A DNA stretch of 64,000 nucleotides from a virus: positions 62,001-126,000 of IMG/VR virus record IMGVR_UViG_3300042691_042003; one strand, 5' to 3'. The position numbers and the translations under genes were made by a program. How positions within the stretch are numbered: position 1 is the stretch's first letter; each line of letters opens with the position of its first letter. The notes below the pieces were generated by a model. The model saw nothing but the letters and a program-made list of their open reading frames with translations, did no database searches and was not told where the DNA came from. Of the stretch, positions 19,957-53,798 are shown piece by piece.

Positions 19957-21801
19957 ATGAGCAATTATTTACTTGTACTAGAAAGATCTGAAGGTAATCT
20001 TGCAGTTTCGAAAGAAGGCGATAAGTATGTCCTAGAAGGAATTTTTACTGAAATCGGAGTAAAGAATAAAAATAATAGAATTTACGACGAAAAAGAATTA
20101 CTTCCACATATTGAAGAGCTACAAACAAAATTAAAAGGAAATAAACTTCTTGGAGAACTAGATCATCCTAAATCTTTTGATATTTCTCTTAGAAATGCAT
20201 CACATGTAATAGAAGATATTAGCTATGATAAAGGGTCTAAGAAAGTTACTGGTAGAATTCGTTTACTTAATACGGATGCCGGTAAACAAGCTATGGCTCT
20301 TGTTGACGCTGGAGTTCCTCTTCATATTTCTAGTAGAGCTGCTGGTGTTGTTGAAGGTAATGGTCATGTAAAAATTAAGAAAATGTTTACTTATGATTTA
20401 GTTGCAGATCCTGGATTTGCTAACGCTGAATTAAAAAGAGTAAACGAATCTTTTGGATTTTCTGATGACGATTTAATTCAAATATTTGAAATTCCTAGCA
20501 CAATAGACGAATCATTTGTTGATGATAAATATACAAAACAAACAAAAAAAGAAGAAATGGATTCTAATCAATACATCAAGGTTGAGGATTTCAATGAATA
20601 TACCAAGCATTTAAAAGAAGAAATCGACGGATTGAAAAAATCTTTAACCGAATCTAAAAATTCAAACGATTCTGAAATCAATGAAGGTTTAGTTCGTTAT
20701 GCTGAAGAAACAGCAAAGAGAGTAAATCAAATCCAAGAATATGTTGGAAAACTTGCCGAATCGGTTGATGGTCTTATTTCACATAACGATTATATCGTTG
20801 AAAATCTAGAAAAAGTTAAAGATTATGCTGAAATGGTTGGAGAAAGATCTAATCAAGGTATTAATTATGCTGAGAAGCTTGCTGAATCGGTAGATCATCT
20901 TATCGAATATACCAAGATAATTGCTGAGAAAGCTGATCAAGGTATCGAATACACTAAGCATATTGCTGAAATGACAGATAATAATATCGAATACACAAAG
21001 CACGTTGCTTTAAAAGCTGATCAAGGTATCGAATACACTAAGTATATCGCTAATGAAAATTCTAATCGTTGGAATTATCAAACCTATATGAATGAGCAAC
21101 TTGATAATGTAATTTCTCATAACGATTATATCGTTGAAGGAACTTCTTCTATTATTGAATATACTGAATATCTCAAAGAACAAACCGAAAATCTTGCTAA
21201 TTACATGAACCATGTGGTTGAAAAGATTAATGAAGGATTTGTTCCTAATTCTTTTGAACCTAAAGATGATTTTGAAAAAGAAATTTCTGAAAAAATCGGA
21301 TCTATTTTAGAATCAGTTAAAGAAGAGGTTTCTTTTGAAAAGAAAGATAATAATTTGAATTTCTTAAATTTCCTTTCTGAAAGTAAAAGAAATCAATTCC
21401 ATTCTCTTAACGATGATATGAAAGAAAGAGTTATTTCTACATTTGAATCTAATAAATATTATGGTTCTGCTGATGCAGAAAAGCTTTTCGAATCTATCTT
21501 TATTATTCAAGCCCCTGTAATGAATTGGCTATCTAATATGCCTTCTAAATACAGAGAAGCATGGAACGGACTTAATGAATCTCAGAAAAATGCAATCAAA
21601 GCTCAAGCTTCTGTTAGAAATCTTGATACTCAATACAAAATTGACGATTTCTGGTCTACAAGAGATTTAAGAACTGTTAAAGTTGAAACTCCTCTTACTG
21701 AATCTAATGAAACAGTAATTGAAGAATCCCCTAAATATGTAACTCCTTCTACATATATGCAAACAGTTGAAGACGAATTAAGAAGGAGATTTAAAAGATA
21801 A
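19957..21801 (+). CDS. 21: Prohead protease fused to scaffold core (gp21-gp22-like)
   Basis: Residues 1-165 form a gp21-type prohead protease with catalytic His70 (GELDHPKSF) and Ser125/126 (PLHISSRAAG). It would cut head proteins after L/I-x-E type sites during maturation. Residues 170-614 are a long, charged coiled coil. This includes five 14-residue repeats (302-371) of the type IEYTKxIAEKADQG, a pattern expected of a scaffold such as T4 gp22. In T4 these are separate genes. An internal site, LKRVNE before SFGF (about residue 164), would let the protease release itself from the scaffold. Several later sites (EINE/G, LTE/S) could dismantle the core. It lies between portal and capsid genes. 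Confidence 0.85.
   Translation: MSNYLLVLERSEGNLAVSKEGDKYVLEGIFTEIGVKNKNNRIYDEKELLPHIEELQTKLKGNKLLGELDHPKSFDISLRNASHVIEDISYDKGSKKVTGRIRLLNTDAGKQAMALVDAGVPLHISSRAAGVVEGNGHVKIKKMFTYDLVADPGFANAELKRVNESFGFSDDDLIQIFEIPSTIDESFVDDKYTKQTKKEEMDSNQYIKVEDFNEYTKHLKEEIDGLKKSLTESKNSNDSEINEGLVRYAEETAKRVNQIQEYVGKLAESVDGLISHNDYIVENLEKVKDYAEMVGERSNQGINYAEKLAESVDHLIEYTKIIAEKADQGIEYTKHIAEMTDNNIEYTKHVALKADQGIEYTKYIANENSNRWNYQTYMNEQLDNVISHNDYIVEGTSSIIEYTEYLKEQTENLANYMNHVVEKINEGFVPNSFEPKDDFEKEISEKIGSILESVKEEVSFEKKDNNLNFLNFLSESKRNQFHSLNDDMKERVISTFESNKYYGSADAEKLFESIFIIQAPVMNWLSNMPSKYREAWNGLNESQKNAIKAQASVRNLDTQYKIDDFWSTRDLRTVKVETPLTESNETVIEESPKYVTPSTYMQTVEDELRRRFKR
20860..21069 (+). repeat. Five 42-base tandem repeats in the scaffold region
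   Basis: Units start at 20860, 20902, 20944, 20986 and 21028, each encoding 14 residues that begin INYAEK, IEYTKI, IEYTKH, IEYTKH and IEYTKY. Fourteen residues is two heptads, as expected for a coiled-coil rod that can lengthen by duplication. Confidence 0.85.
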
Positions 21802-21894: not shown

Positions 21895-23529
21895 ATGTAT
21901 TTAATTAACGAACAAGAAGTTTTCGGTAAATGGGCTCCAATTATCGAATCAACTACCGGCATTCAGGATCGTTCTAAAGTTGAATGGATGTCTAAGTACT
22001 GTCATTATCATGAATTGTACGAAAATAATAACCTCGCTCAACTTGGTGCTGTAAATGGCATGGGAGCTACTCGTTTCCCTGGAGATCCAGGAACTCAAAG
22101 TCAGTTCTTCTCTCAAGAAACTGGTTCTGGTGATAAGGCTCACACTCTTCTTCCTCTTGCTATGCAAGTTGCAGCTCAGACTGTAGGTCTTGATCTAGTT
22201 CCTGTTGTACCTATGCCTGGTCCTATGGGTGTTCTTACCTATCTTGACTTCGTATATGGTGGTGGTAAAACTAATGGTACTGGTGCTAACATTCCTCTCC
22301 TTGTAAAAGTTGATGTAGGATCTACTGCTGCTCCTGGTGCTGCTGGAACTACTGGAGGTATTACTTATACTTATGTAGGACCTTCTCGTATTGACGGTAA
22401 TGCTATATTCCATATTACTGGTTCTCTTACTACTGGTACTATTCTTTCTAATATGTATGCTTCTGCTGGTTCTACTAACCTTAACAATGTTAAATATACT
22501 GGAGCTGTTACTAAGGTTGAATTAGTTAAAGCTCTCGAAGATCATATTACTGGTTTCTCTGGAGATTCTCTTCGTGCTGGAATTTATGCAGATACTGCTA
22601 ATAATGGTGTTAATGATCCTCTTTCTCGTTTTGATGGTGAAGGAACTCAAGATAACATCATGAACTTAAGCCTTTTCAACAAATCTGTTGAAGCTAAAAC
22701 TTTCCAAGTTGCTGCTGCTGTTACTCGTGAGCAAGTTCAGGATCTTAAGCAATTTGGAGTTGATGCTGTTTCTCAGGTTGAATCTGTTCTTATTAACGAA
22801 CTTACTCAATCTATCAACAAGAACATTCTTTCTAGAATCTTCGCTCTTGGTGAAAGAAACCACTCTCAAGTTATTTCTACTCAAGGTCTTAACTTCTTCT
22901 TGAACCTTGGTTCTATTCCTAGATTAGTATCTTATGCTTCTGTTACTAACGCTCCTTATACTGCTTTTGCTTCTTATCTTAGCAGCAATTACAGTAATTT
23001 AACAGGTGCTACAATGAACGCAACTGAAAATTCTTCTTCACCTGCTGAAAACCTTTCTACTCGTCAGCGTAAGATCATGTCTAAGATCCTTGCAATTGCT
23101 AACCTAATTGCTATCCGTGGTCGTCGTGGTCCTGCTACTTTCGTAGTAACTAACGGTCAAGTATGTTCTGCTCTTCAGGATGTAGCTGGTTTCGTACCTG
23201 CTCCTATGGCTAACACCATCAATCAGATGAGCGGTTCTCTTTACCCAATCGGTACCCTTGCTGGTCTTGCTATCTACAACGATCCTAACATGGCTTGGAA
23301 CGATACTCGTTTCTGTGTAGGTCGTAAAGGTGATGGTAATTCTCCAGGACTCGTATTTATGCCTTACTTGATGGCTGAATCTGTTCAGACTATCGCTGAA
23401 GGTACTATGGCTCCTAAGGTTGCTGTTAAGTCTCGTTATGCTCTCGTTGAAGCTGGTTTCCACCCACAAACCATGTATTTAACTTCCGGAGTTCATATCG
23501 ATTCTCTTATCGCTGGAGGTTTAGTATAA
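21895..23529 (+). CDS. 23: Major capsid protein (gp23)
   Basis: 544 aa (T4 gp23 is 521). Builds the prolate or isometric head shell. The N-terminus MYLINEQEVFGKWAPIIEST resembles the T4 gp23 start, whose first 65 residues are removed by gp21. A likely cut here is after LYE43. Later motifs include ITREQVQDLKQFG-like (VTREQVQDLKQFGVDAVSQV) and RGRRGPATFVVTNGQV, which match the T4 capsid fold. Codon use is more biased to C-ending codons in the second half, as expected for a very highly expressed gene. A strong terminator follows. Confidence 0.95.
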   Translation: MYLINEQEVFGKWAPIIESTTGIQDRSKVEWMSKYCHYHELYENNNLAQLGAVNGMGATRFPGDPGTQSQFFSQETGSGDKAHTLLPLAMQVAAQTVGLDLVPVVPMPGPMGVLTYLDFVYGGGKTNGTGANIPLLVKVDVGSTAAPGAAGTTGGITYTYVGPSRIDGNAIFHITGSLTTGTILSNMYASAGSTNLNNVKYTGAVTKVELVKALEDHITGFSGDSLRAGIYADTANNGVNDPLSRFDGEGTQDNIMNLSLFNKSVEAKTFQVAAAVTREQVQDLKQFGVDAVSQVESVLINELTQSINKNILSRIFALGERNHSQVISTQGLNFFLNLGSIPRLVSYASVTNAPYTAFASYLSSNYSNLTGATMNATENSSSPAENLSTRQRKIMSKILAIANLIAIRGRRGPATFVVTNGQVCSALQDVAGFVPAPMANTINQMSGSLYPIGTLAGLAIYNDPNMAWNDTRFCVGRKGDGNSPGLVFMPYLMAESVQTIAEGTMAPKVAVKSRYALVEAGFHPQTMYLTSGVHIDSLIAGGLV

Positions 23530-24187: not shown

Positions 24188-25285
24188 ATGAAAGATTTAA
24201 ATTCTATAAAAGATTTATATTTGTATAAATTATACGAAGAAAATCTAATAAGTTCATTAGAAGAAATTTTAAATGAAGAAGATTCTAAGGAAGGAGAAAA
24301 AAAATCTCTTATCGATAAGATAAGAGATAAGATAAGGTCTTTGAGAGAAAAGATGCCAGAAAATCCTGATAATAAACCTGCTATTACTAAAAAAAGAGAA
24401 GCTATTTCAAATAAAATTGATACTCTTAAAGACCAAGTAGAAAAAGAGGAAAAAAAGGAGGAATCTAATGATAAAAAAATTAAAAGATTAGAAGAAGAAT
24501 ACAAAAAGGCTAAAGAAAATTATGAATCTCAGTATGCCGATTTAGTAGAAGCTGGTAAAAGTGCTAGAGAAGCTACTCATAAAATTCTTGAAAGTGGATT
24601 TTTTGGAAGAGTGAATTTTTTTGCTTGGTTATTTGTTAGTAGTAGAAGAGCTAAAACTAGGGTTGAATTTCTAGAAGGTCTTTCTAAAATGATTCCTAAT
24701 CAAGAAAAAGCTAAAATGGTTGATGATCAGCTTAATAAAGCTAAAGAAATCGCTGATTCTTTAACAAAACAAATGGATGAAGCTGAAGAAAGGGGAGAAG
24801 AATCTGCTAAGAAAACAGATCCAAAAAAATTAGAAAAAGCACAATCTTCTGAAACTCCTGAAGAAACTCCTGAAGAAACTCCTGAAGAAACTCCTGAAGA
24901 AACTCCAGAAAAAGGAGATGAAGAAAGGCAAAATTTAATGGGTTCCGGAAGTTCAGAAGAACCTAAAGAAGATGATCTAAAAAAAGAAGAACCTAAAGAA
25001 GATACAGAAGATGAGAAGAAAAAAATTGAATCTCAAATAGACGAATTAAAATCTAAATTAGAAGATGTTAAAAAATCGGCTGAAGAGAAAAAATCAGAAG
25101 GTGATGAAGAATCTTATAAATCAATAATGGATAACGTTGAAAAAATTCAAAATGTTATTAAAGAATTAGAAGATAAAAAATCAACATTAGAATCTTTTGA
25201 TGAAGATAGCTCTAAAATTTGGGCAATTAATTGGTTATTAAATGATCTTCAAAATAGAATTAATCTAGGAGAACTAAATGGTTGA
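24188..25285 (+). CDS. Acidic coiled-coil protein with TPEE repeats, 365 aa
   Basis: Highly charged, predicted almost entirely helical, with coiled coils at about 35-120 and 275-345. A moderately hydrophobic patch (RVNFFAWLFVSSRRAK, near residue 140-155) may be a membrane or partner contact. Five TPEE repeats form an extended linker near residue 223-242. The N-terminal segment SSLEEILNEEDSK contains a possible protease site (ILNE). It overlaps the next gene by 8 bases. Probably a virion internal or scaffold-like protein; no homologue recognised. Confidence 0.55.
   Translation: MKDLNSIKDLYLYKLYEENLISSLEEILNEEDSKEGEKKSLIDKIRDKIRSLREKMPENPDNKPAITKKREAISNKIDTLKDQVEKEEKKEESNDKKIKRLEEEYKKAKENYESQYADLVEAGKSAREATHKILESGFFGRVNFFAWLFVSSRRAKTRVEFLEGLSKMIPNQEKAKMVDDQLNKAKEIADSLTKQMDEAEERGEESAKKTDPKKLEKAQSSETPEETPEETPEETPEETPEKGDEERQNLMGSGSSEEPKEDDLKKEEPKEDTEDEKKKIESQIDELKSKLEDVKKSAEEKKSEGDEESYKSIMDNVEKIQNVIKELEDKKSTLESFDEDSSKIWAINWLLNDLQNRINLGELNG
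24852..24911 (+). repeat. 12-base tandem repeat (ACTCCTGAAGAA), about five copies
   Basis: Exact 12-base units encode TPEE repeats in the acidic coiled-coil protein. The last unit has one third-base change. Likely recent slippage expansion. Confidence 0.9.
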
Positions 25286-25766
25286 AATTCGTAGACAAAA
25301 TGCAGGCAAAACACCTACAAAATACGGAATAGTTACAAAAGGTCTAAAACCTAGATATAAAAAAGTTCTTAATGAAAATCCGGTTATTAAGAAATATTCG
25401 GATGATGATAGGTTCATACAGGCCATCTTCAGGATTGAAGATGAGAAGATAAGATTATCCCATTTACAAAGGCCGTTTGTTCACCCTGTGTCAAAAGAGA
25501 TATACACGTTTGAATGTATTAAAGACTCTTATAAAATATTTAATTGGGAATGTGCTTATTGTAAAATTCCAATACAATCGAGAATAGATAGATTTAGTCC
25601 TGATAATTTTACATGTGAAAAATGCTATAAGTACTATATTAAAGATTCTAAAAAAATAAATCAAAGAATTATTGAGTCTTCACTTTCTTTTACCGAAAAA
25701 TGTAAGAGGATGATGATAGATAATCAGAAATCATTCTTAAAATATCTAAAGAAAAATGAAAAATAG
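25278..25766 (+). CDS. Small zinc-ribbon-like protein, 162 aa
   Basis: Basic protein with a four-Cys cluster: C92 and C95 (CAYC), then C113 and C116 (CEKC). This spacing fits a zinc ribbon. A further Cys occurs at 80. The basic N-terminal region (GLKPRYKKVLNENPVIKKYS) could contact nucleic acid. It overlaps the preceding gene by 8 bases and the RimK-like gene by 11 bases. Base composition in 25400-25510 is a little less AT-rich than its surroundings. A late-transcription co-activator or a structural zinc protein are both possible; unproven. Confidence 0.6.
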   Translation: MVEIRRQNAGKTPTKYGIVTKGLKPRYKKVLNENPVIKKYSDDDRFIQAIFRIEDEKIRLSHLQRPFVHPVSKEIYTFECIKDSYKIFNWECAYCKIPIQSRIDRFSPDNFTCEKCYKYYIKDSKKINQRIIESSLSFTEKCKRMMIDNQKSFLKYLKKNEK

Positions 25767-27231
25767 GTTCGATTATTTTGATCAATTTGTTTTAAATGAA
25801 GCTAAGAAAAATAAAACCCCTAAGATTAAGGTTCTTATGCTCTCAAATATTAGTGAAGAATCTTATACTGTTCCTGCAGTTGAAGCCGAATGTAAAAAGA
25901 GGGGGATAGTTTTCCGTATTATCGATATTAACACTTGCTCTTTAATTAAAGATAAGAAAGGAGACGGTTATATTATAAATGATAAAACTAAGGTTCCTTT
26001 TAAAATAGATTCTGAAGACACAGCTATACTTACTAGAAGAGGAGTCGTTAGAAGTACTATGACGAGAGATCTTATTTCTCAATTAGAGGATGCCAATTTC
26101 TTTGTTGTTAATACTCTTGAATCTATTCTTGCTTGTGAGAATAAATTTGTCACTTCAAAAATTCTTATGAATGCTGGAATTCCAGTTCCTAAAATGGCAA
26201 TTGTTGATGGTGAAGAATCTATCGATTCAGCTCTAAAAGAAATAGGTGGTCAATTTCCTATAGTTCTTAAAATGCTTTCAGGATCTCATGGTATTGGAGT
26301 TTCTATTATTGAATCTCTCGCTTCTCTTAAATCGGTTTTACAAACTATGTGGAAAATCGATCCAAATATCGAAACTCTTATTCAAGAAAAAATTGATTCT
26401 GATTACGATCTAAGAATCCACGTTCTTACTAAAAGATTTAATTCTCCTTCTCCGGATGAAACCGATTCAGTTCTCCTTGGTTATATGAGACGTAATAGAG
26501 TTAAAAAAGATTTCAGAACTAATTATTCTCTTGGAGGAACGGTTGAAAAAACTAAGGTTACTCCTGAACAAGAAAAAATTGCGATTGAGGCTGCTAAAGC
26601 TGTAGGTTGTAATTGGTGCGGTGTTGATCTGATCGTTGATAAGAAAACGAAGAAAAATTATGTTCTTGAAGTTAATTCTTCTCCAGGAACACAAGGTTTG
26701 AAAAAAGCTACAGGAGTCGACGTAGTAAAAGATATAGTTGATTTTCTTTCGGATAAAAAGAATTGGATTAGATCTCGTAGAGTTATAGGTTTTAGAGAGG
26801 TAATAACAATTCCAGAAATAGGTGATGTTATTGCTAAATTTGATACTGGTAACGGAGCTATGTCTTGCTCATTAACTTACGATACTGCAGAATTAATTGA
26901 TGGAGATAAATTTATCGAATGGGAATTAGGAGGTAAAAAATTCAAAAGTAAAGTAGTAGGATTTTCTACTGCTGAAGTCGGTCCTAAAACACACGAAAGG
27001 CCTACTATTCTTATGGACATATCTTTTGCAGGTAAAACTTATAAAGATGTTGAAGTTTCTCTAGTAGACCGTAAAGAAAAATCTACTAAATTCTTAGTAA
27101 ATAGAAAATTCATGGAAAGAATAGGATGTTCTGTTTCTCCTTATAAAACATTTATGATTACTTCTTTTGATGGAGAATATTCAGCAAGAGATGCAAAAGG
27201 AGATCCACATGCAGGAATAAAATTTATATAA
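25756..27231 (+). CDS. Tagged RimK-like ATP-grasp ligase fused to a retropepsin-like (PF05618-type) domain
   Basis: Begins MKNRFDYFDQFVLNE before AKKNK, a head-targeting tag with a cut after Glu15. Residues 23-340 match RimK: the ATP-grasp loop VLKMLSGSHGIGVS (about 171), EKIDSDYDLRIHVL, KKDFRTNYSLGGTVEK, GVDLIVDKKTKKNYVLEV and NSSPG (metal-binding Glu and Asn, about 303-311). RimK enzymes add glutamate residues to protein C-termini, classically ribosomal protein S6. Residues 345-491 resemble the RimK-associated retropepsin-like domain (so-called ATP-dependent zinc protease). They carry FDTGNGAMSC with candidate catalytic Asp363, then ERPTILMDISFAGKTYKDVE and FLVNRKFMERIGCSV. A packaged, injected protein-modifying enzyme is inferred, analogous to the T4 Alt strategy but with different chemistry. 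Confidence 0.85.
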   Translation: MKNRFDYFDQFVLNEAKKNKTPKIKVLMLSNISEESYTVPAVEAECKKRGIVFRIIDINTCSLIKDKKGDGYIINDKTKVPFKIDSEDTAILTRRGVVRSTMTRDLISQLEDANFFVVNTLESILACENKFVTSKILMNAGIPVPKMAIVDGEESIDSALKEIGGQFPIVLKMLSGSHGIGVSIIESLASLKSVLQTMWKIDPNIETLIQEKIDSDYDLRIHVLTKRFNSPSPDETDSVLLGYMRRNRVKKDFRTNYSLGGTVEKTKVTPEQEKIAIEAAKAVGCNWCGVDLIVDKKTKKNYVLEVNSSPGTQGLKKATGVDVVKDIVDFLSDKKNWIRSRRVIGFREVITIPEIGDVIAKFDTGNGAMSCSLTYDTAELIDGDKFIEWELGGKKFKSKVVGFSTAEVGPKTHERPTILMDISFAGKTYKDVEVSLVDRKEKSTKFLVNRKFMERIGCSVSPYKTFMITSFDGEYSARDAKGDPHAGIKFI

Positions 27232-27508: not shown

Positions 27509-27802
27509 CATTTTTATAATCATTAGAATTGATAGAAGAATCGAAGTGCTCATAAATCCATATGCAATGAATTTTGGAATTTGTGAATGAAATTCATGAA
27601 GCATCCAAAATATATTCATAAAAATCCAAGAAGTAACGGTTAAATTTTCTAATCTATTTTCTTTCTCGGTCCATAACATATAAAGAGAGAAAAAGATTGT
27701 TGGAACCGTCATTATTTTTGCAAGGAGAGATAATTGAAGGCACCATAATGAATCTTTAATTACCCAAGAAATAATATGCAGCTTATTAGAAATTTCTTTC
27801 AT
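27494..27802 (-). CDS. Small membrane protein, 102 aa
   Basis: Three hydrophobic segments are visible (about 27-45 IMTVPTIFFSLYMLW, 53-72 NLTVTSWIFMNIFWMLHEF, 78-97 FIAYGFMSTSILLSILMII), ending with basic KMKKGR. Its start overlaps the stop of the speD homologue (TAATG on the minus strand), so it is the second gene of the only minus-strand unit in the window. It could be an inner-membrane transporter-like or holin-like protein; nothing specific is recognised. Confidence 0.65.
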   Translation of the reverse strand: MKEISNKLHIISWVIKDSLWCLQLSLLAKIMTVPTIFFSLYMLWTEKENRLENLTVTSWIFMNIFWMLHEFHSQIPKFIAYGFMSTSILLSILMIIKMKKGR

Positions 27803-28227
27803 TAGTATTCAGAATTATTATAGCTGCTATGATCTCTTTCAATAGTTTCAGATCCATTAGACACTACATGTAAACCTTTATTTCGATCGATCATCATCCA
27901 ATCATAACTAACAAGTTCCATCATATCTAAATGATCTATAACTGTTTGAAGTTCATATTTTTTACATGAATAAATATCAAATTGTAACATAGGAACTTCT
28001 AAAGCATCCCATATATGAATTGAAGCATGAGATGTTGCTAAGGTAACAGTTCCAGTGATTCCTTCATTACCTTCTTCATCAACATAAACCGATGTAGGTC
28101 CAGCAACTACGACCATTCCAACTTTTTCTACTAAATCTCTAAACCATTTATTTAAGATTTCTTCTGATTTAATAGGTTTTTTACAAAAAGCTTTTACCAA
28201 CAAATGTTGATGATAGGGTATGAACAT
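27802..28227 (-). CDS. speD: S-adenosylmethionine decarboxylase homologue (SpeD-like)
   Basis: 141 aa, the size of bacterial class 1b AdoMet decarboxylase proenzymes. The core LATSHASIHIWD matches the LAESHISIHTWPE motif. Ser66 would be the autocleavage residue that becomes the pyruvoyl group, and His71 and Cys88 (FDIYSCK) match the processing His and catalytic Cys. The Glu normally before the serine is Thr here. The enzyme would make decarboxylated AdoMet for spermidine synthesis, or deplete AdoMet; SpeD relatives acting on ornithine or arginine are also known. Genes of this type occur in cyanophages. It lies on the minus strand, divergent from an early-type promoter. Confidence 0.8.
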   Translation of the reverse strand: MFIPYHQHLLVKAFCKKPIKSEEILNKWFRDLVEKVGMVVVAGPTSVYVDEEGNEGITGTVTLATSHASIHIWDALEVPMLQFDIYSCKKYELQTVIDHLDMMELVSYDWMMIDRNKGLHVVSNGSETIERDHSSYNNSEY

Positions 28228-29976: not shown

Positions 29977-30231
29977 ATGAAAAATTTCCCTTCTTATGAA
30001 GAATTCTTAAATGAAGGAAATTGGTCTCAAATGATGAAAGGTGTAAGAACTGGTTCGGTCCCTTACACTATTGTTGCTATCGATAGAGTAGCTAAAAAAG
30101 TCGTAGGCCAAGAAATCGTTAGTATTCGTGATGCAGTTCCTGCTTATTACGAAGATATGAAACGTAGATTCTCTAAGTTTCATTTACATATTGAAGATTC
30201 TACTGGAAAGGTAGTTTGGTCAGAAAAATAA
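29977..30231 (+). CDS. Tagged internal protein candidate, 84 aa (array gene 1)
   Basis: Begins MKNFPSYEEFLNE before GNWS. The mature protein would be about 71 residues with a beta-alpha-beta look (VPYTIVAIDRVAKKVVGQEI; RRFSKFHLHIEDSTGKVVW). It opens a run of eight consecutive genes whose first 13 codons are related. Small and basic, it would fit the role of an injected internal protein. Function unknown. Confidence 0.7.
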   Translation: MKNFPSYEEFLNEGNWSQMMKGVRTGSVPYTIVAIDRVAKKVVGQEIVSIRDAVPAYYEDMKRRFSKFHLHIEDSTGKVVWSEK

Positions 30232-30239
30232 AATCAGAA

Positions 30240-30617
30240 ATGAACACACATATTAAATCATTTAATGAATTCCTTAATGAAAGTGTAAATGATCCTGTTC
30301 TCGTTGCTTTACGTGCTGCTAAAGAAGATCGTAAAAAGATGATGATGGATAAGAAAGAAAGAATGAAAAGGCGAGTTTACGGTGCAAAACGTGAACAAAT
30401 GGAAGCTGAGCTAGATAAAATCTGGCAAGAAATTAAGGATAATAAGCAGCAACAATCTGATCTTTGGAGAGAAATGGAAGCCGAGGCCGGTGATAAGAGC
30501 CCAAACTTTTCAGATGCAGATGGCAACCGTTATGGTCAAAAATTCAACGATCTTGATGATGAATTAGAAAAGCTTTATCGTCGTCGTTCTGAATTAGAAA
30601 CAAAATTAGCATATTAA
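30240..30617 (+). CDS. Tagged coiled-coil protein, 125 aa (array gene 2)
   Basis: The ATG at 30240 gives MNTHIKSFNEFLNE before SVND; an upstream in-frame TTG is ignored because it would bury the tag. The rest is a nearly continuous helix with basic clusters (KEDRKKMMMDKKERMKRR) and a Gln/Glu-rich second half. DNA binding inside the head is conceivable given the basic part. Confidence 0.7.
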   Translation: MNTHIKSFNEFLNESVNDPVLVALRAAKEDRKKMMMDKKERMKRRVYGAKREQMEAELDKIWQEIKDNKQQQSDLWREMEAEAGDKSPNFSDADGNRYGQKFNDLDDELEKLYRRRSELETKLAY

Positions 30618-30618
30618 G

Positions 30619-30870
30619 ATGAATCATATTCCTTCATTTGAAGAATTTTTAAACGAAAGTTCTCATTATAAAATTGACGATTTCCAAGTTGGAGATGTTA
30701 TTCACTTTAAAGATGGTGAAGCTTGGAAAGTTGTTAAAGTTAATAATATAAGAGATTTAATCTCAGTATTTCCTCATAATAAGTTAGCAAAAGATAAAAA
30801 CGTTAGCATAACGATAGAATTAAGACTTAAATATCTTAATGATAACGTAACAAAAATTGAAAAGTCTTAA
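30619..30870 (+). CDS. Tagged SH3/KOW-like protein, 83 aa (array gene 3)
   Basis: Begins MNHIPSFEEFLNE before SSHY. The following segment VGDVIHFKDGEAWKVVKVNN has the look of a small SH3-like or KOW barrel, comparable to the 57-residue protein at 51689. Starts two bases after the previous stop. Confidence 0.7.
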   Translation: MNHIPSFEEFLNESSHYKIDDFQVGDVIHFKDGEAWKVVKVNNIRDLISVFPHNKLAKDKNVSITIELRLKYLNDNVTKIEKS

Positions 30871-30871
30871 T

Positions 30872-31699
30872 ATGAAAAATATCCCTTCTTTTGAAGAATT
30901 CGTAAACGAAAGTTTGAACGAATCTCTTAGCTTAACTCTTAGGGATGTTCCTAAAATCGTTAAGGATTTCGTTTCGAGGACTAAATATATCAAAAATCTT
31001 AAAGAAAAAGATTGGTTAACTGCATCGGAAATTATCATAGTAACTGATAAAGATTTTGATATAAAAGGTAAATCAACAACTGGCAATTATATGTTGCTAG
31101 GACTTTATAAAACTTATGGACCTGTTTATAAAGTTGAATGGGCATCCGTAAGACCTGATATGAAATATCCTGCTAATGCTGGAATCTATAATAAAGAGAT
31201 TGATAAAGCCACATGGGAAAAACTAAAAAATGCCCATGAAAGAAAAATGATCGATCCAAAAAGTCTTACGGCTAATGATATTAAAAACACAGGAGATCTT
31301 TTAGGTAAATTCATAACCGATGAAATTAATACATCTTCGGTTCCTGTTAAAGGTCAATTTGATCCAACAAATTCAGGATCAATTAAAATGGAAATTGAAA
31401 GTGCTTATAAAGATTCAGAAGTTAGTATCGTTAGAGGAGATAATGTAAGAGTAGATTTCTACTTTAAACGTGCTGGTGATGGCCGTAATGTTGCTAAAAC
31501 TAATCTATTCTTTATCATAGATCCTTCTCAACAATCGGTAGAATTTAAAAATCCTGATGTTAGTGGTCTTAGTAGAGCAAACTACAGAAATATGAGAGAT
31601 ATTTCAGCATTCTTTAAGAGTTCTATTCAAGCTTGGAAGGATGAAGATAAGAGAAGATCAGATGCTATGCAACAAACAGCATTTAGTCAAGATAGATAA
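30872..31699 (+). CDS. Tagged internal protein candidate, 275 aa (array gene 4)
   Basis: The start chosen at 30872 (one base after the previous stop) gives MKNIPSFEEFVNE before SLNES, so two cuts six or so residues apart are possible (VNE and LNE). The mature part is alpha/beta with NYMLLGLYKTYGPVYKVEWA and a second domain from about 165 (VRVDFYFKRAGDGRNVAKTN). No enzyme motif is recognised. It is among the largest members of the array. Confidence 0.7.
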   Translation: MKNIPSFEEFVNESLNESLSLTLRDVPKIVKDFVSRTKYIKNLKEKDWLTASEIIIVTDKDFDIKGKSTTGNYMLLGLYKTYGPVYKVEWASVRPDMKYPANAGIYNKEIDKATWEKLKNAHERKMIDPKSLTANDIKNTGDLLGKFITDEINTSSVPVKGQFDPTNSGSIKMEIESAYKDSEVSIVRGDNVRVDFYFKRAGDGRNVAKTNLFFIIDPSQQSVEFKNPDVSGLSRANYRNMRDISAFFKSSIQAWKDEDKRRSDAMQQTAFSQDR

Positions 31700-31714
31700 A
31701 AAAATAAAACAATA

Positions 31715-32014
31715 ATGAATAATCATATTCCATCATTTGATGAATTTTTAAATGAAAGTTCTCTTCAAGGAACTCCTAAATTTCTTCCAGGTAAAGCTGC
31801 TATTGCTTATGGTGATGAAGAAGGTAAAATCGTAGCTGCTGAATTTGCTAAAGATTGGAAGAAACTTAAGAAATACGACGAAACCGGTTGGTTAGATCCT
31901 ACTGAAATGAAAAACATGGGAATCGAACCTACAGATATTCTCGTAGCCTTCAAAGATTCTGAAGGAGGAATTAATGTATACACTTACGGTGAAGGAGGTG
32001 TAGAGCTAAAATAA
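31715..32014 (+). CDS. Tagged internal protein candidate, 99 aa (array gene 5)
   Basis: Begins MNNHIPSFDEFLNE before SSLQ. Acidic body with KFLPGKAAIAYGDEEGKIVA and a C-terminal beta segment (DILVAFKDSEGGINVYTYGE). Function unknown. Confidence 0.7.
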   Translation: MNNHIPSFDEFLNESSLQGTPKFLPGKAAIAYGDEEGKIVAAEFAKDWKKLKKYDETGWLDPTEMKNMGIEPTDILVAFKDSEGGINVYTYGEGGVELK

Positions 32015-32025
32015 AAAATTAAAAA

Positions 32026-32583
32026 GTGAAACATATACAATCGTTCGACGAATTCATTAATGAATCAGAAGATCAGAATCTTCCTCTTAATGAAAATAAT
32101 TTAGTTTATATTAAAGATAAGAAATTTAAATCTTCACAAGATATTATGAATTTCTTTCAGAAAAATGCAGGTTCCGCTTTTGAAAAATTTATTTCTGATA
32201 AAATGGGAGTGAAAGCTAAAGCTGTAACTGGAGTTTCCAGAAGAGGTGATGCTGTTAATATTTCTACACAACCAATTTCTAAAAAAGATTTAGGAATTTT
32301 TGGATTTGTTTTTAGTGAAGTATCTATCGATTCTTTTGGTGGAGGTATAATTGAACATCAAATGGTAAATAATATGCAATTTGAATTTTGTCCTGCTATC
32401 TTCTTTAGATTACATGTTAGTTATAAACATATAGGAGGTGGTTCTAACGGTGCCGATATTGTACTTCCTAGTAATGATCCTTACAATACTCTTATTATGT
32501 ACGATATCGTAGAAAATCGTTTTCTAGATCAGGCCGAAGCTAAAGCTTCTAAAACTAAATATTGGGTCGAAGGATCTTGGTAA
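32026..32583 (+). CDS. Tagged internal protein candidate, 185 aa (array gene 6)
   Basis: Starts at a GTG: the tag reads MKHIQSFDEFINE before SEDQ. The body is beta-rich (DAVNISTQPISKKDLGIFGF; FEFCPAIFFRLHVSYKHIGG) and ends TKYWVEGSW. The GTG start is supported by the conserved tag, which begins exactly at this codon. Function unknown. Confidence 0.7.
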   Translation: MKHIQSFDEFINESEDQNLPLNENNLVYIKDKKFKSSQDIMNFFQKNAGSAFEKFISDKMGVKAKAVTGVSRRGDAVNISTQPISKKDLGIFGFVFSEVSIDSFGGGIIEHQMVNNMQFEFCPAIFFRLHVSYKHIGGGSNGADIVLPSNDPYNTLIMYDIVENRFLDQAEAKASKTKYWVEGSW

Positions 32584-32599
32584 AAATAAAATTTAAATA

Positions 32600-33427
32600 G
32601 TGAAACATATAAAATCATTTGACGAATTTTTAAACGAAGGTCTTAACGAGGCTAATATCTCATTCTATAAAAATGTAGTTCAGCAAGCTATTAAAGATGC
32701 TTTAGGGCATGATGTAAAACAATCTGATGTTAAAGTAGGAGCAAAAAAGCAAAGTGGAGGATATGATTTGATTACTCTTAATGGAAAACTTCTTTGCTCT
32801 TCTTCTCAACACGATGAAATGCTTCGTTCTGCAACTAATGCAATTAAAGAAGATCCTGCTAAGTATGGTTTGAAAGAATCTGCAATGAACGAAGCAATGA
32901 CTTTCGATGATGCTGTAAAGCAATTTACTGCAAATCCTTATGGAATTGGTGCTAGTCGAGTTCATGTTGTAGGAGATGAAGAACATCATGTTAAAGGTCA
33001 TAGAATTCTTAAATTCTTTCATTCAACTGCTTTCGATAGAGATAAAACTATGGCTAAACTAAAAACTCTAGGTTTTAGCGCAAAGAACATGACAAAGAAC
33101 ATGACCGATAAAGGATATATGTTCAGATATTATATAAGCCTTTTTGAAGGAGCAGTAAATGAAGATTCTATTGATGAAGCTGCTAAATGGCCTCTAACCG
33201 ATAAAATTGACAGTAAAACTTTTTATGATATGTGGGCTTCTTTAGATGTTGCTACTCAAAATCTCAGTGATTATATGGATGAAGCAAATAAAGGAAAAGA
33301 AAGTGATGCTCTATTCTCTTTGAAAGTTGCTTATGATGAGCTAACTGATTTAATGAAAAGTAAGACAATCGAAAAGCAGCTAAAAGCTATTGCAGAAGAG
33401 CTAAAAGATAAAAATGCACTTAAATAA
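32600..33427 (+). CDS. Tagged multi-site protein, 275 aa (array gene 7)
   Basis: GTG start giving MKHIKSFDEFLNE before GLNEA. Several additional x-N-E sites occur: GLNE/A (17), AMNE/A (near 97) and AVNE/D (near 183). They would divide it into three roughly equal globular pieces, so it may be a polyprotein. Pieces: residues 18-97 (small alpha/beta domain), 98-183 (basic, FDRDKTMAKLKTLGFSAKNM) and 184-275 (helical). Function unknown. Confidence 0.65.
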   Translation: MKHIKSFDEFLNEGLNEANISFYKNVVQQAIKDALGHDVKQSDVKVGAKKQSGGYDLITLNGKLLCSSSQHDEMLRSATNAIKEDPAKYGLKESAMNEAMTFDDAVKQFTANPYGIGASRVHVVGDEEHHVKGHRILKFFHSTAFDRDKTMAKLKTLGFSAKNMTKNMTDKGYMFRYYISLFEGAVNEDSIDEAAKWPLTDKIDSKTFYDMWASLDVATQNLSDYMDEANKGKESDALFSLKVAYDELTDLMKSKTIEKQLKAIAEELKDKNALK

Positions 33428-33429
33428 TT

Positions 33430-33669
33430 ATGAAGAATATTCCCTCTTTCGAAGAATTCTTAAATGAAGCTGCAAGAGTCGATACATTTCCTTACAAAGC
33501 TTCACATTCTAAAGATCCTAAAGGTTTTGGACTTTGGTATTTTAGTTTCAGTAAAGATGGTTCCGATTCCTTTTCCCCTGAAAAATCTATGAGTTACGGA
33601 GATGCTTTGAAATGGGCACAAGCTCAAGCAAAAGAAAAGAAACAATCTGTTATTTATGTAATGGGATAA
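33430..33669 (+). CDS. Tagged internal protein candidate, 79 aa (array gene 8)
   Basis: Begins MKNIPSFEEFLNE before AARV, identical in the tag to genes 3-4 of the array over most positions. The mature part includes FGLWYFSFSKDGSDSFSPEK and SYGDALKWAQAQAKEKKQSV. Last gene before the terminator at 33699. Confidence 0.7.
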   Translation: MKNIPSFEEFLNEAARVDTFPYKASHSKDPKGFGLWYFSFSKDGSDSFSPEKSMSYGDALKWAQAQAKEKKQSVIYVMG

Positions 33670-35038: not shown

Positions 35039-35263
35039 ATGTTAGAATTCTCAAAAACTCGAACAGGCAAGAAATTTATCGAAAACGATATTCCTGCTTT
35101 AGTCCTAGCTTTAAGTAAGCTTACTGAATCAATTAACGAATCGAATAAAATCGAAGAAAAAAAATTAGTCTTAGAACAGAAACGTTATATAACAGAAAAA
35201 AATGCCGGAATTACCAGAAGTAGCGAGGACGACAATATCGCTGAACAATCGATTACAGAATAA
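35039..35263 (+). CDS. Small hypothetical protein, 74 aa
   Basis: Starts one base after the RNase H stop and overlaps the glycosylase gene by 62 bases in a different frame. Lys/Glu-rich helix (LALSKLTESINESNKIEEKK). The last 20 codons are constrained by the overlapping Fpg start, so only the first part may be under selection. Unrecognised. Confidence 0.45.
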   Translation: MLEFSKTRTGKKFIENDIPALVLALSKLTESINESNKIEEKKLVLEQKRYITEKNAGITRSSEDDNIAEQSITE

Positions 35264-36020
35264 GGAAATTTCTGAAGTTATCATACATTCGGGTCGCTAT
35301 ATGAGACATGGCGACCCGATTGGTTTAGATAGGTTTCGATTAGATCTTCCTGCAAAAGTAGACTCTGTAAATTTCTATGGAAAATTTATTCTTTTCGAAT
35401 TAACTAGTAGAGAAGGAAAAAAATGGTGGATTTGGAATACTTTAGGAATGTCAGGTGGATGGAGAAATGAACATTCTAAGCATGGACATGTCGAATTAAA
35501 ATCAGAAGGATTCTCTGTATTTTTTACCGATGCAAGGAATTTCGGAACAATGAAATTTATAGATTCAAAATCTTTAACTGAAAGAAAAATTTCTTCAATA
35601 GGACCAAATCATCTCGCTAATGATATTTCAGATGAACTTTTCGAACAAAGATTAATGAAATATCCTGAATCTACTATGCCTCAGGTTTTAATGAATCAAA
35701 ATCTTATTGGAGGGATAGGTAATTATATTAAAGCTGAAATCCTTTACAGAGCAGGTGTTTCCCCTCATCGGAAAGTAAAAGAACTTACTAAAGAAGAATT
35801 TTCAAAATTAAATAAAGCTACTGCTGAAGTTGTTAGAAGCTCTTTCGTTAATGGAGGAGCTTCTTTTCATTCTTACTTTGGAATGGATTGGGAAGAAGGT
35901 AAATTTCCTTTTTATTTTAAGGTTTATGGAAGAGATGTTTGCGAACGAGGATATAAAGTCGTAAGAGAAAATACTCTTGATGGAAGAGCAACTTGGTGGG
36001 TTCCTGAAATACAAAAATAA
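35202..36020 (+). CDS. Formamidopyrimidine/endonuclease VIII-type DNA glycosylase
   Basis: Begins MPELPEV, the hallmark of Fpg/Nei with catalytic Pro2 and Glu3; K61 (FYGKFILFEL) matches the conserved catalytic-site Lys. It excises oxidised bases and nicks the strand. GGIGNYIKAEILYRAGVSPH is the helix-two-turn-helix. The C-terminal finger FKVYGRDVCERGYKVV followed by GRATWWVPEIQ keeps the active-site Arg but has only one Cys, so it is probably a zincless finger like NEIL1. 272 aa, normal length. Confidence 0.92.
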   Translation: MPELPEVARTTISLNNRLQNKEISEVIIHSGRYMRHGDPIGLDRFRLDLPAKVDSVNFYGKFILFELTSREGKKWWIWNTLGMSGGWRNEHSKHGHVELKSEGFSVFFTDARNFGTMKFIDSKSLTERKISSIGPNHLANDISDELFEQRLMKYPESTMPQVLMNQNLIGGIGNYIKAEILYRAGVSPHRKVKELTKEEFSKLNKATAEVVRSSFVNGGASFHSYFGMDWEEGKFPFYFKVYGRDVCERGYKVVRENTLDGRATWWVPEIQK

Positions 36021-36366: not shown

Positions 36367-36777
36367 ATGGAACTATTCGATTTTACAAAAGTAATTTTTA
36401 CAAACCCAAAGGAATATACTAAAACAAAAAATTCTGAAAAGGCTAAACATTTTTTTATGATTCAAAGGTTTTTTAGTATAAAATTTCCTACAACCGCACA
36501 GTCTCTTAATAGAAATGGAATTAATCCTTGGGCTGTTATGGATCTTTGGCATATTGTAGGATCTCGTTTCCAGAAAGTGCCAGGGTGGATATATACAAAG
36601 ACAAAAAAAGTACAAACAGAAAAAACTTGGAAACCTAATCCAGAAATTTCTAGAATTTGGAAAGAAAGAAATGGATTAGGAGAAAGAGAACTTCAATTTG
36701 CAATTAAGTTTAATCCAGAAGAAATGAAGAAAAGTTTTTCACTGTTGGAAAAACAAATTATTATGGATGATAAGTGA
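36367..36777 (+). CDS. Possible clamp loader small subunit (gp62-like), 136 aa
   Basis: The plan LFDFTKVIFTNPKEYTKTKN, FFMIQRFFSIKFPTTAQSLN, then WAVMDLWHIVGSRFQKVPGW is reminiscent of clamp-loader small subunits of marine T4-like phages. Those carry a D-Y-x-x-x-I-x-x-T-K start followed by F(I/M)(V/I)NRxxS and a hydrophobic helix (from memory). The clamp loader large subunit at 28990 needs such a partner and no better candidate is present. The ATPase lid would not be expected in this subunit. Tentative. Confidence 0.4.
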   Translation: MELFDFTKVIFTNPKEYTKTKNSEKAKHFFMIQRFFSIKFPTTAQSLNRNGINPWAVMDLWHIVGSRFQKVPGWIYTKTKKVQTEKTWKPNPEISRIWKERNGLGERELQFAIKFNPEEMKKSFSLLEKQIIMDDK

Positions 36778-37438
36778 TGAGAATGAAGAGCTTGGAGAAT
36801 ACTTTTTTATGATAGAACCAATAATTTTAGAGATATACCTAAATAAGAATAATTATAAGGAAAGACTTCTGATAAATGATTTAAAGAAAAGTGCTAGAAC
36901 TATTAAAATAGATCATATTACTGAAGATTCTTCTTTCTTTGTTAACGCTTCAGAGGTAGAAGATATTCTTTATTCTAAGTATAAAAAAGAAATAAATAAT
37001 TTCGATTCTACTCATCCTAATCGTCTTTTAAATACTACAAATTCTATTTTCTTCTTAGAATCTGCTATTAGGGGATTTCAAAATCTAAGATATTTTAGAA
37101 TTCATGTTTCAGAAGATGAAGAGTTAGCAAAATCTAAGGGATCTATAGATTATAAAATAATGCATTCAAAAATAGATTTAGGAAAAAATCTAACTCCTGA
37201 ATTTTACGAAAAATGTATTTATGTTTTTAAGAAAATAGGTCTTTACGATCCTTCATTTTTAAATCCAAAACCTTATGTAGAAATTAATACAAGAGAGTTA
37301 TTCTTTCATCTTTATAAATACCAATCAGAATTTGAAGAAGAAGAGGAAGAATTTCATATTGTAGAAGACATTATTTCAATTTTTGGTCCTAAATTAGAAG
37401 CAGATAATTCTATGATATTAATTATTCTAGAAAAGTAG
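36767..37438 (+). CDS. Hypothetical acidic protein, 223 aa
   Basis: Not recognised. Starts 11 bases before the previous gene ends. An internal Met (36810) is an alternative start, giving MIEPIILEIYLNKNNYKERL. Acidic C-terminal patch (SEFEEEEEEFHIVED). Mixed alpha/beta, no membrane segment. It immediately precedes the late neck/terminase block. Confidence 0.55.
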   Translation: MISDENEELGEYFFMIEPIILEIYLNKNNYKERLLINDLKKSARTIKIDHITEDSSFFVNASEVEDILYSKYKKEINNFDSTHPNRLLNTTNSIFFLESAIRGFQNLRYFRIHVSEDEELAKSKGSIDYKIMHSKIDLGKNLTPEFYEKCIYVFKKIGLYDPSFLNPKPYVEINTRELFFHLYKYQSEFEEEEEEFHIVEDIISIFGPKLEADNSMILIILEK

Positions 37439-39863: not shown

Positions 39864-40490
39864 ATGGATTCAGAGAACAAAGATAATCCTGCAAGAAGAT
39901 CTATAGAAGATCTACTTAATGAAGAAAACAATTTACCTACTCAATCAAGTAGTCTCCCTGCCTTTCAATTGAATGAGCCAGTAGATTATGATGAAATGAA
40001 AGCTTCTTCGATAAATAAATCAAAGAAGCTAATGAATTCTCTTCTTAAATTTTATCTCTCTCAAGAGCTAATAGATAATAATGAATATATTCAAGCTAAA
40101 GCAAAGCTTGAGATGATGACTCTTTCTAATTTAGTCAATCAAATGCAAATTGCTGAAAGAGCTATTACAACATTAATGAGAACTATCGATACAGGAGAAG
40201 TTACTCCTCGAATGTTTGAGGTTCTTGCAGGTCTTCAAAAGACAATGCTAGATATTATGAAACATCAAACTCTTCATATGATGGCTGCTGAAGAAAATAT
40301 GAAGAAGCTAAAAAGAGATATTGATGTTTATTCAAATACAATAGAAATTAAACCGAACCAAAAAATAGAATCAGGAAACGTTTCAAGAGGAACAAGAAAT
40401 TTAATGAAAGAGATTCAAGCTGAATTAGGAAATGAAGAAGACTCGGATGATCCTAATGATTTTGATTCTGATTCTCAAAATGAACTATGA
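39864..40490 (+). CDS. 16: Terminase small subunit candidate (gp16-like)
   Basis: 208 aa, mostly helical, two genes before the large terminase. The centre (LINQMQIAERAITTLMRTID-like, with ITTLMRTIDTGEVTPRMFEV and LAGLQKTMLDIMKHQTLHMM) fits the T4 gp16 oligomerising core. The N- and C-termini are acidic and flexible. gp16 recognises DNA and stimulates gp17. Identification relies on gene order plus helical character. Confidence 0.65.
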   Translation: MDSENKDNPARRSIEDLLNEENNLPTQSSSLPAFQLNEPVDYDEMKASSINKSKKLMNSLLKFYLSQELIDNNEYIQAKAKLEMMTLSNLVNQMQIAERAITTLMRTIDTGEVTPRMFEVLAGLQKTMLDIMKHQTLHMMAAEENMKKLKRDIDVYSNTIEIKPNQKIESGNVSRGTRNLMKEIQAELGNEEDSDDPNDFDSDSQNEL

Positions 40491-41173
40491 AAAATATAAA
40501 TACTTCTTTTAAATTTTTAAAATTTGGAGATTTTCAAAGAAAAGGACATAACGATAAAGAAATGGATCCTAGACATATAAAAAGAATAGAAGGGGAAAAA
40601 GTCATATATTTAACTTTCGATATGTGTCCTTCTTCTAAATTAGATTCTGATATTATTGATTATCTTAAGAAGAGTAGATATGAAGCTTCATTTTTTGTTT
40701 GTGTAGATTGGATCGAAAAAAATCAAGGAGGAGTTGATTTTTCATTTTTAGATGATCCTTCTTTTACGATAGGAGGGCATGGATATCATCACGTAGATCC
40801 TTTAAAGCAATCTGATGATGAGCAATTAGAAGATTTAAATAAAGCTCTTAATTATTGGATTGATTCTGGTAAAAAAATTCATTGGTATAGAACACCTTTC
40901 GGACATCCTACTGAAACAACTTTTTCTTTTTTGAAAAAGAATGGAATTAAATGTGCTTCTTGGTCAGGTCCAGTTTTTGATAAAAAAGACGGAGGTGTTA
41001 ATTATAATCCAAACGATGCAGCTAAATTTTATATCGAAAATTCTTTAAGAGATGGAGATATTGTTTTAATGCATGCTAATGGACAAGGAATTAATACTCT
41101 TAAAATCCTAAAAGAATTTACTTACGAATTATCTAAGCAAGGATATAAATTCAAAAAACTACCTAATGTTTAA
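40487..41173 (+). CDS. Polysaccharide deacetylase (NodB/CE4 family)
   Basis: 228 aa. CE4 motifs in order: motif 1 YLTFDMCPS (43-49; canonical TFDD, here the second Asp is Met), motif 2 GGHGYHHVDP (96-105; metal-binding His), motif 3 WYRTPFGHP (about 138-146), and motif 5-like DIVLMHANG. It would remove acetyl groups from N-acetylglucosamine in peptidoglycan or surface polysaccharide. No signal peptide is visible. It overlaps the terminase small subunit by 4 bases and the large subunit by 8, an unusual position for an accessory enzyme. Activity is uncertain because of the altered motif 1. Confidence 0.82.
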   Translation: MKNINTSFKFLKFGDFQRKGHNDKEMDPRHIKRIEGEKVIYLTFDMCPSSKLDSDIIDYLKKSRYEASFFVCVDWIEKNQGGVDFSFLDDPSFTIGGHGYHHVDPLKQSDDEQLEDLNKALNYWIDSGKKIHWYRTPFGHPTETTFSFLKKNGIKCASWSGPVFDKKDGGVNYNPNDAAKFYIENSLRDGDIVLMHANGQGINTLKILKEFTYELSKQGYKFKKLPNV

Positions 41174-53205: not shown

Positions 53206-53798
53206 ATCATGTAGTAGTAGGTATTGGAGGACTTGCAAAGCAAGCTTTAAGCACTTTTAATAAAGAAAGGCCTCTTCTTTTTTATGTTAATATGGACATA
53301 GAAGATGATGAATTTTATGAGCACCCTATAATTAAATCTAAAGTAGATCTTCCTAAGACTTTTACTTTTTCCGTTTGTATAGGTGATCCTAAATGGCGTA
53401 AGAAATTCTATGAAGAAATGTCTTCTTTGGGAGGGGATCCTCTTAATACTTATGGAAATTATAATATAATTGAAAAGGTAGATATAGAGAAAGGTAATAT
53501 GTTTCTAAATTATGTTTTAGTAGAGCTAGGATCTAAAATAGGAAGTGGGAATCTTTTTAATTGTTATTCTTCGGTTTTTCATGATGTAGAAATAGGAGAT
53601 TTTAATGAAATAATGCCAGGAGCTAAAATTTTAGGTGGAGCTAAAATAGGTAATTCTTGTAGAATAGGAACTAATTCTGTAATTTTTCCTAAAGTCAAAA
53701 TTTGTGATAATGTTGTTATTGGTTCAGGATCAATTGTTAGAAAGGATATTAACGAATCAGGAACTTACGTAGGATCTCCTATAAGGAGGATAAAATAA
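53202..53798 (+). CDS. PglD/NeuD-type sugar acetyltransferase
   Basis: 198 aa. N-terminal Rossmann-like segment (NHVVVGIGGLAKQALSTFNK) followed from about 105 by a left-handed beta helix made of hexapeptide repeats (IGSGNLFNCYSSVFHDVEIG; PGAKILGGAKIGNSCRIGTN). His127 matches the catalytic His of PglD. The end ESGTYVGSPIRRIK is the usual G(N/S)PA(K/R) ending. It would acetylate an amino sugar, fitting the aminotransferase at 47046. Confidence 0.88.
   Translation: MNHVVVGIGGLAKQALSTFNKERPLLFYVNMDIEDDEFYEHPIIKSKVDLPKTFTFSVCIGDPKWRKKFYEEMSSLGGDPLNTYGNYNIIEKVDIEKGNMFLNYVLVELGSKIGSGNLFNCYSSVFHDVEIGDFNEIMPGAKILGGAKIGNSCRIGTNSVIFPKVKICDNVVIGSGSIVRKDINESGTYVGSPIRRIK

What the first reader, a model, noticed from the sequence alone, without database searches (positions are those of the whole stretch)
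25756..27231. Packaged RimK-like ligase fused to a retropepsin-like domain
The protein joins three parts seldom seen together in a phage: a head-targeting tag ending FVLNE before A, a complete RimK-type ATP-grasp ligase and a C-terminal domain resembling the RimK-associated aspartic/zinc protease family. If injected, it could glutamylate or otherwise modify a host ribosomal or other protein at the first moment of infection, parallel to T4 Alt ADP-ribosylation. The fused protease-like domain could process or reverse the modification.
Basis: partly seen in the sequence, partly recalled or inferred. Interest (0 to 1): 0.88.

Follow-up and report, generated by a model that had tools for sequence, protein, structure and literature searches.

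The report
Head-targeted phage polyglutamate ligase-protease fusion
A large phage that probably infects Bacteroidota makes a single protein that can in principle both add and remove chains of glutamate on proteins; it carries a sorting tag that should load it into the virus head, so it may be injected with the DNA to alter a host protein at once.

Summary
ORF 25756-27231 (+, 491 aa) has three parts: an N-terminal T4-type capsid-targeting peptide (MKNRFDYFDQFVLNE|A), a complete RimK-family ATP-grasp ligase, and a C-terminal RimB/RloA retropepsin. Models: full length pLDDT 85, best PDB match RimK; C-terminal domain pLDDT 89, best match RloA2, then HIV protease. Over 48 relatives all ATP-grasp residues checked, catalytic Asp363 and three poly-Glu-binding residues known from RloA (Lys361, Arg415, Arg439) are conserved. 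The tag occurs on about 28 of 318 ORFs of this phage, and on 38 of 50 distinct relatives against 16 of 647 neighbouring ORFs, even where the gene lies elsewhere; a remote relative (YerA41) is annotated as a structural protein. The fusion itself is not new: phage RimK-DUF785 was reported in 2008, bacterial RimBK hybrids in 2025, and 544 IMG/VR stretches encode relatives. New here are the head tag, its conservation and the intact poly-Glu site. Ribosomal protein S6 is doubtful as substrate: the likely hosts are Bacteroidia, whose S6 tails are basic. Likeliest function: a packaged, injected polyglutamylase with a built-in poly-Glu protease; substrate unknown.

The parts
25756..27231 (+). 491-aa fusion protein: capsid-targeting peptide, RimK-type ATP-grasp ligase, RimB/RloA-type retropepsin
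25756..25800 (+). predicted capsid-targeting propeptide, residues 1-15 (MKNRFDYFDQFVLNE), cut predicted before Ala16
   Evidence: unstructured in the model; T4 rule L/I-X-E from PMC9026906. Cleavage itself not shown.
25825..26754 (+). RimK-type ATP-grasp ligase, residues about 24-333
   Evidence: PF08443, TIGR00768; fold match RimK 5zk6, 7qys
26626..26676 (+). codons of ATP-grasp metal-ligand residues Asp291 (26626-26628), Glu305 (26668-26670), Asn307 (26674-26676)
   Evidence: aligned with RimK D, E and N; invariant in 48 of 48
26773..27228 (+). RimB/RloA-type retropepsin domain, residues about 340-491
26836..26850 (+). codons of active-site motif K361-F-D363-T-G365, catalytic Asp363 at 26842-26844
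   Evidence: equivalent to K46 and D48 of RloA (PMC12239564)
26998..27072 (+). codons of Arg415 (26998-27000) and Arg439 (27070-27072), counterparts of the poly-Glu-contacting R114 and R137 of RloA
   Evidence: alignment to 9g59, conservation 47 and 48 of 48, residue roles from PMC12239564
27234..27485 (+). 83-aa protein directly downstream, leader MKKLKNIQSIEEYLGE|A, probably also head-targeted
   Evidence: conserved next to the fusion in close relatives
19957..21801 (+). prohead protease (gp21/S77 type), the presumed enzyme that removes the tag
   Evidence: PF03420 3.6e-12, phrog_207 1.3e-39
21895..23529 (+). major capsid protein (gp23 type)
   Evidence: PF07068 8.4e-36

Best explanation
A virion-packaged, bifunctional polyglutamylation enzyme. 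The tag directs the precursor into the prohead core, and the phage's gp21-type protease cuts after LNE15 (inferred). The mature RimK-RimB protein is packed with the DNA and enters the host at infection (inferred from the T4 IP and Alt precedents). Inside, the ATP-grasp half adds alpha-linked glutamates to the C-terminus of a host protein (or makes free poly-Glu) using cell ATP and glutamate. The dimerising retropepsin half trims or removes poly-Glu and probably stimulates or limits the ligase, as RimB does for RimK. The substrate is unknown; S6 is possible but not favoured in Bacteroidia. Step likelihoods: tag functional and protein in the head 0.85; ligase active as a Glu ligase 0.8; retropepsin cuts poly-Glu 0.7; injected and acting on a host target 0.6.
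For: Tag; it follows the protein to different gene neighbourhoods and is unstructured in the model. T4 CTS and L/I-X-E rule: PMC9026906. Virion annotation of the YerA41 relative. Ligase. Protease; catalytic Asp and poly-Glu contacts conserved. RimB removes poly-Glu from S6 and stimulates RimK poly-Glu synthesis, and a RimBK hybrid keeps protease activity (PMC11957791).
Against: No direct proteomics for this phage; YerA41 gp66 lacks a T4-type tag and its peptide evidence was not read. A six-member sister clade lacks the tag, so packaging is not needed in all lineages. Gly of the RimB LLGR motif is Asn in the phage family, with unknown effect. No substrate is known; Bacteroidia S6 tails look unsuitable. 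PF05618 cut-off is not met by the window protein itself.
Confidence: 0.58

Rival explanations
1. It works inside the prohead on the phage's own products. The prohead protease leaves C-terminal Glu on each fragment it frees (L/I-X-E cut), which are natural RimK acceptors; the ligase would extend them and the retropepsin would clear poly-Glu during head maturation.
For: Tag and gene next to the capsid gene in the closest relatives; every predicted tag peptide ends in Glu.
Against: In many relatives the gene lies beside DNA polymerase, not the head genes; in T4 most freed peptides leave the head (PMC9026906). No poly-Glu in phage heads is known to me.
Confidence: 0.12
2. It is an ordinary cytoplasmic auxiliary gene, made during infection, that glutamylates ribosomal protein S6 as in the 2008 proposal; the leader is not a working packaging signal.
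For: RimK-only proteins exist in cyanophages; six fusion relatives lack the tag; host translation was the earlier suggestion (PMC2530865).
Against: Tag conserved on 38 of 50 relatives against 16 of 647 neighbouring ORFs; unsuitable S6 tails in the likely host group.
Confidence: 0.17
3. It is a ligase for a small molecule or carrier protein (folate or F420 type, glutathione, LysW type) rather than for protein C-termini.
For: Those families score behind RimK; phage relatives are annotated as glutathione synthetase.
Against: Among the ligase models compared only the RimK family model passes its cut-off; the fused domain has the poly-Glu site of RloA/RimB.
Confidence: 0.05

Closest known systems
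Marine phage RimK homologs with C-terminal DUF785 (Monier et al. 2008, PMC2530865)
   Same: Same two domains in the same order, in T4-like phage contigs with clamp loader, sheath or terminase genes
   Different: No head-targeting tag was noted, DUF785 was then of unknown function, and sequences were short GOS contigs
RimBK hybrids of bacteria (Desulfotalea psychrophila DP2392; PMC11957791)
   Same: RimK ligase and RimB retropepsin in one chain; proteolysis of poly-Glu shown
   Different: RimB at the N-terminus there, C-terminal here; cellular, no tag; separate clade of ligase
RloA/RloA2 of Pseudomonas (9g58, 9g59; PMC12239564)
   Same: Retropepsin fold, D-T-G, and Lys/Arg poly-Glu contacts
   Different: RloA is secreted and a separate protein; here fused to the ligase, with Asn after D-T-G and Asn for the LLGR Gly
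Yersinia phage YerA41 gp66 and Pelagibacter phage Mosig gp5
   Same: Same fusion, 34% identical; YerA41 protein annotated as structural; Mosig has a LEE|A leader
   Different: YerA41 lacks a T4-type tag; different hosts; both shorter at the C-terminus
T4 internal proteins and Alt
   Same: N-terminal propeptide with L/I-X-E cut, head packaging; Alt modifies a host protein on entry (PMC9026906)
   Different: Alt is an ADP-ribosyltransferase; no relation in the enzyme part

Membership tests
RimK family alpha-L-glutamate ligase | Family model TIGR00768 above its cut-off | tested here: met
   160.1 against 143.4 bits
RimK family alpha-L-glutamate ligase | ATP-grasp active-site residues (metal ligands D, E, N; ATP lysines) | tested here: met
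   invariant in 48 of 48
RimK family alpha-L-glutamate ligase | Fold of RimK | tested here: met
   5zk6 E 2e-23, TM 0.86 on target
RimK family alpha-L-glutamate ligase | Ligation of Glu to a protein C-terminus | not testable with these tools
   needs an assay
S6--L-glutamate ligase equivalog (PRK10446) | Model above its cut-off of 331 bits | tested here: not met
   88.6 bits; not filed as the S6 ligase
RimB/RloA retropepsin (PF05618) | Pfam model above its cut-off of 27 bits | tested here: inconclusive
   window protein 14.6; YerA41 29.0 and Mosig 28.0 relatives pass; profile-profile 99%
RimB/RloA retropepsin (PF05618) | Catalytic Asp in D-T-G and retropepsin fold | tested here: met
   Asp363 in 48 of 48; RloA2, then HIV protease by fold
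RimB/RloA retropepsin (PF05618) | Conserved poly-Glu contacts K46, R114, R137 | tested here: met
   Lys361, Arg415, Arg439
RimB/RloA retropepsin (PF05618) | Homodimer and poly-Glu cleavage | not testable with these tools
   no multimer prediction or assay was available
T4-type head-packaged (CTS) protein | N-terminal leader shared with other proteins of the phage and ending in L/I-X-E | tested here: met
T4-type head-packaged (CTS) protein | Phage encodes a gp21-type prohead protease | tested here: met
   19957-21801
T4-type head-packaged (CTS) protein | Presence in virions, cut at the tag | not testable with these tools
   only a remote relative annotated as a structural protein; its mass-spectrometry table not read

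The most novel reading that the evidence does not exclude
A large, undescribed clade of environmental jumbo phages delivers a self-regulated write-and-erase polyglutamylation enzyme inside the virion, making protein polyglutamylation a first-minute host-takeover modification like T4 Alt's ADP-ribosylation, on a target other than S6.
Probability: 0.4. Interest if true: 0.8.

Novelty: new variant of a known kind. Interest (0 to 1): 0.62.

Why it matters
No injected phage enzyme known to me (from memory, not searched exhaustively) adds amino acids to host proteins. The family is common in environmental phages (544 matching stretches in IMG/VR), but in the isolate collection only YerA41, its close relative GN1 and Mosig match over most of their length, so it has escaped study. 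Because ligase and protease share one chain, two sets of point mutants (Asp363; Asp291/Glu305) would test writer and eraser separately, and any Glu ladder on a host C-terminus is readable by mass spectrometry. It could also point to a role for RimK/RimB in Bacteroidota, where S6 does not look like the acceptor.

Tried and rejected
1) PF05618 search over the whole record: no hit; the domain is too divergent for that single-sequence test and was shown instead by relatives, profile-profile comparison and fold. 2) Link with phage-encoded ribosomal protein S21 (found in Mosig and the L064 phage): not general, 2 of 19 related records, none in this record. 3) Zn-ribbon-like gene upstream (25278-25766) as a LysW-like carrier: no family match and a tail ending KKNEK, unlike LysW; dropped. 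4) Poly-Glu runs in phage proteins as protease substrates: a single EEEEEE run in the window, no link shown. 5) A YerA41 tag: none of the YerA41 structural proteins read shares a T4-type leader. 6) Bacteroidetes promoter motif count: not above chance, so the host inference rests on lack of Shine-Dalgarno motifs and on protein neighbours.

Full report
OBSERVATION. The ORF at 25756-27231 (+) is real and complete; it occurs once in the 246,081-base virus record from which the window comes. It lies downstream of a gp21-type prohead protease (19957-21801) and a gp23-type capsid protein (21895-23529). In the closest relatives the same order capsid - small genes - fusion - clamp loader is kept.

TAG. 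Residues 1-15, MKNRFDYFDQFVLNE, resemble the leaders of other proteins of this phage (MKNIPSFEEFLNEA, MKHIKSFDEFLNEG, MKNLKTYEEFLNES), with one extra residue. A regular expression for this form hits the first 40 residues of 13 of 77 ORFs in the window and only 12 places in 17,694 other residues (p = 1.5e-5), and 28 of about 318 ORFs over nearly all of the record. The L-N-E ending fits the T4 prohead protease rule L/I-X-E, and in T4 the first ten residues of IPIII suffice for head targeting (PMC9026906). The model leaves residues 1-19 unstructured (pLDDT below 50). Among 50 distinct relatives, 38 match the tag expression against 16 of 647 other ORFs in the same loci (the sequences are related, so the p value overstates independence). 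Four more relatives have an ITEA leader. In many relatives the gene lies directly downstream of DNA polymerase instead of near the capsid gene, so the tag travels with the protein and not with the locus. Six relatives forming one clade lack the tag, although neighbouring genes in three of them have it; all six have an L/I-X-E triplet in their first seven residues, a lead only.

LIGASE. PF08443 3.4e-35; TIGR00768 RimK family above its cut-off, while the S6-ligase equivalog PRK10446 is far below its own. The best solved structures by fold are RimK complexed with RpsF and Pseudomonas RimK. Lys130, Lys172, Glu211, Asp291, Glu305, Asn307 and the RimK R-x-N (254-256) are invariant in 48 sequences.

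PROTEASE. By sequence the window protein meets the RloA2 model at 3.6e-8, below that model's cut-off, and the family profile meets RloA2 9g59 at 1.5e-9. Against bacterial RimB-type proteins encoded beside rimK it gives 99% probability, E 6e-18. Its own model (pLDDT 89) matches RloA2, Lpg0085, RloA and then HIV protease. PF05618 itself falls short for the window protein and is passed by two isolate relatives. The catalytic Asp363 is invariant. Of the four symmetric poly-Glu contacts described for RloA, three (K46, R114, R137) are shared with RimB (PMC12239564); they correspond to Lys361, Arg415 and Arg439, conserved in 48, 47 and 48 of 48. The correspondence of the two arginines rests on the alignment to 9g59 and on their spacing (23 residues in RloA, 24 here). 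One change is consistent: the Gly of the bacterial L(L/I)GR motif is Asn in the phage family.

VIRION EVIDENCE. Yersinia phage YerA41 gp66 (34% identical, same two domains) is annotated 'structural protein'; the YerA41 study found 63 virion-associated proteins by LC-MS/MS and proposed that enzymes among them are injected (PMC7354516). I could not open its table to confirm gp66 by peptide count, and YerA41 lacks a T4-type tag.

HOST AND SUBSTRATE. Upstream regions of 50 genes show no Shine-Dalgarno signal and are A-rich, as in Bacteroidia (PMC9976891). Best isolate matches of ribonucleotide reductase are Flavobacterium phages (58%), of terminase Tenacibaculum and Chryseobacterium phages with Sphingomonas phage PAU between them, of the capsid protein Prevotella Lak phages. 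The host is thus probably in Bacteroidia, but this is inference. In Bacteroidia, S6 ends in Asp/Glu in 3 of 34 genomes and is net basic over the last 12 residues; in Gammaproteobacteria 11 of 21, net acidic. S6 is therefore a weak candidate here. Bacterial RimBK is found mostly in Flavobacteriales and Rhodobacterales (PMC11957791), so another acceptor in this group is plausible.

KNOWN OR NEW. RimK with a C-terminal DUF785 domain in T4-like phage contigs was reported in 2008, with host translation suggested as target (PMC2530865). [quoted passage not shown] The phage proteins form one clade apart from cellular RimK (quick tree, long branches noted), and 544 IMG/VR stretches encode a relative. 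What I did not find described in the papers searched is the capsid-targeting tag, its conservation across gene positions, and the intact poly-Glu site in the phage domain. Hence 'new variant of a known kind'.

MECHANISM. Shown by sequence and models: tag, two intact active sites, family-wide conservation. Inferred: cleavage, packaging, injection, dimerisation, Glu ligation, poly-Glu cleavage, host target. The write-and-erase pairing in one chain, delivered at entry, is the most economical reading; action within the prohead on Glu-ended fragments, and plain late or cytoplasmic expression, are the main rivals and cannot be excluded.

Noticed in passing
window 29977-33669: Eight small genes in tandem, each with the capsid-targeting leader (MKNIPSFEEFLNEA type); six of them were tested and match no Pfam family. 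A probable store of unknown head-packaged proteins.
   Followed up: partly
L253:13111-14013 (record 237911-238813): A family 2 glycosyltransferase with a tag-like leader MFFKKFEEFVNENEE: possibly another packaged enzyme.
   Followed up: no
L084, L099, L102, L103, L104, L105: Sister clade of the fusion without the usual tag; all six have L/I-X-E within the first seven residues, like the 7-residue propeptide of T4 Alt.
   Followed up: partly
window 36767-37438: The only run of six glutamates in the window's proteins (EEEEEE), the shortest run that RimB cuts well in PMC11957791.
   Followed up: no
window 27802-28227 (-): S-adenosylmethionine decarboxylase (PF02675 3.6e-12) on the minus strand just downstream of the fusion, conserved in several close relatives: polyamine synthesis.
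   Followed up: no
L025:82-1131 (Melnitz-3): A phage RimK that groups with Mosig inside the fusion clade but lacks the retropepsin, perhaps a secondary loss (long branches).
   Followed up: partly
window 47046-48170 and 53202-53798: DegT-type sugar aminotransferase and hexapeptide acyltransferase genes, with a polysaccharide deacetylase at 40487-41173: possible sugar modification of DNA or surface.
   Followed up: no
window 35202-36020 and 48643-49587: Formamidopyrimidine-DNA glycosylase (MutM type) and an IMP dehydrogenase/GMP reductase domain protein.
   Followed up: no
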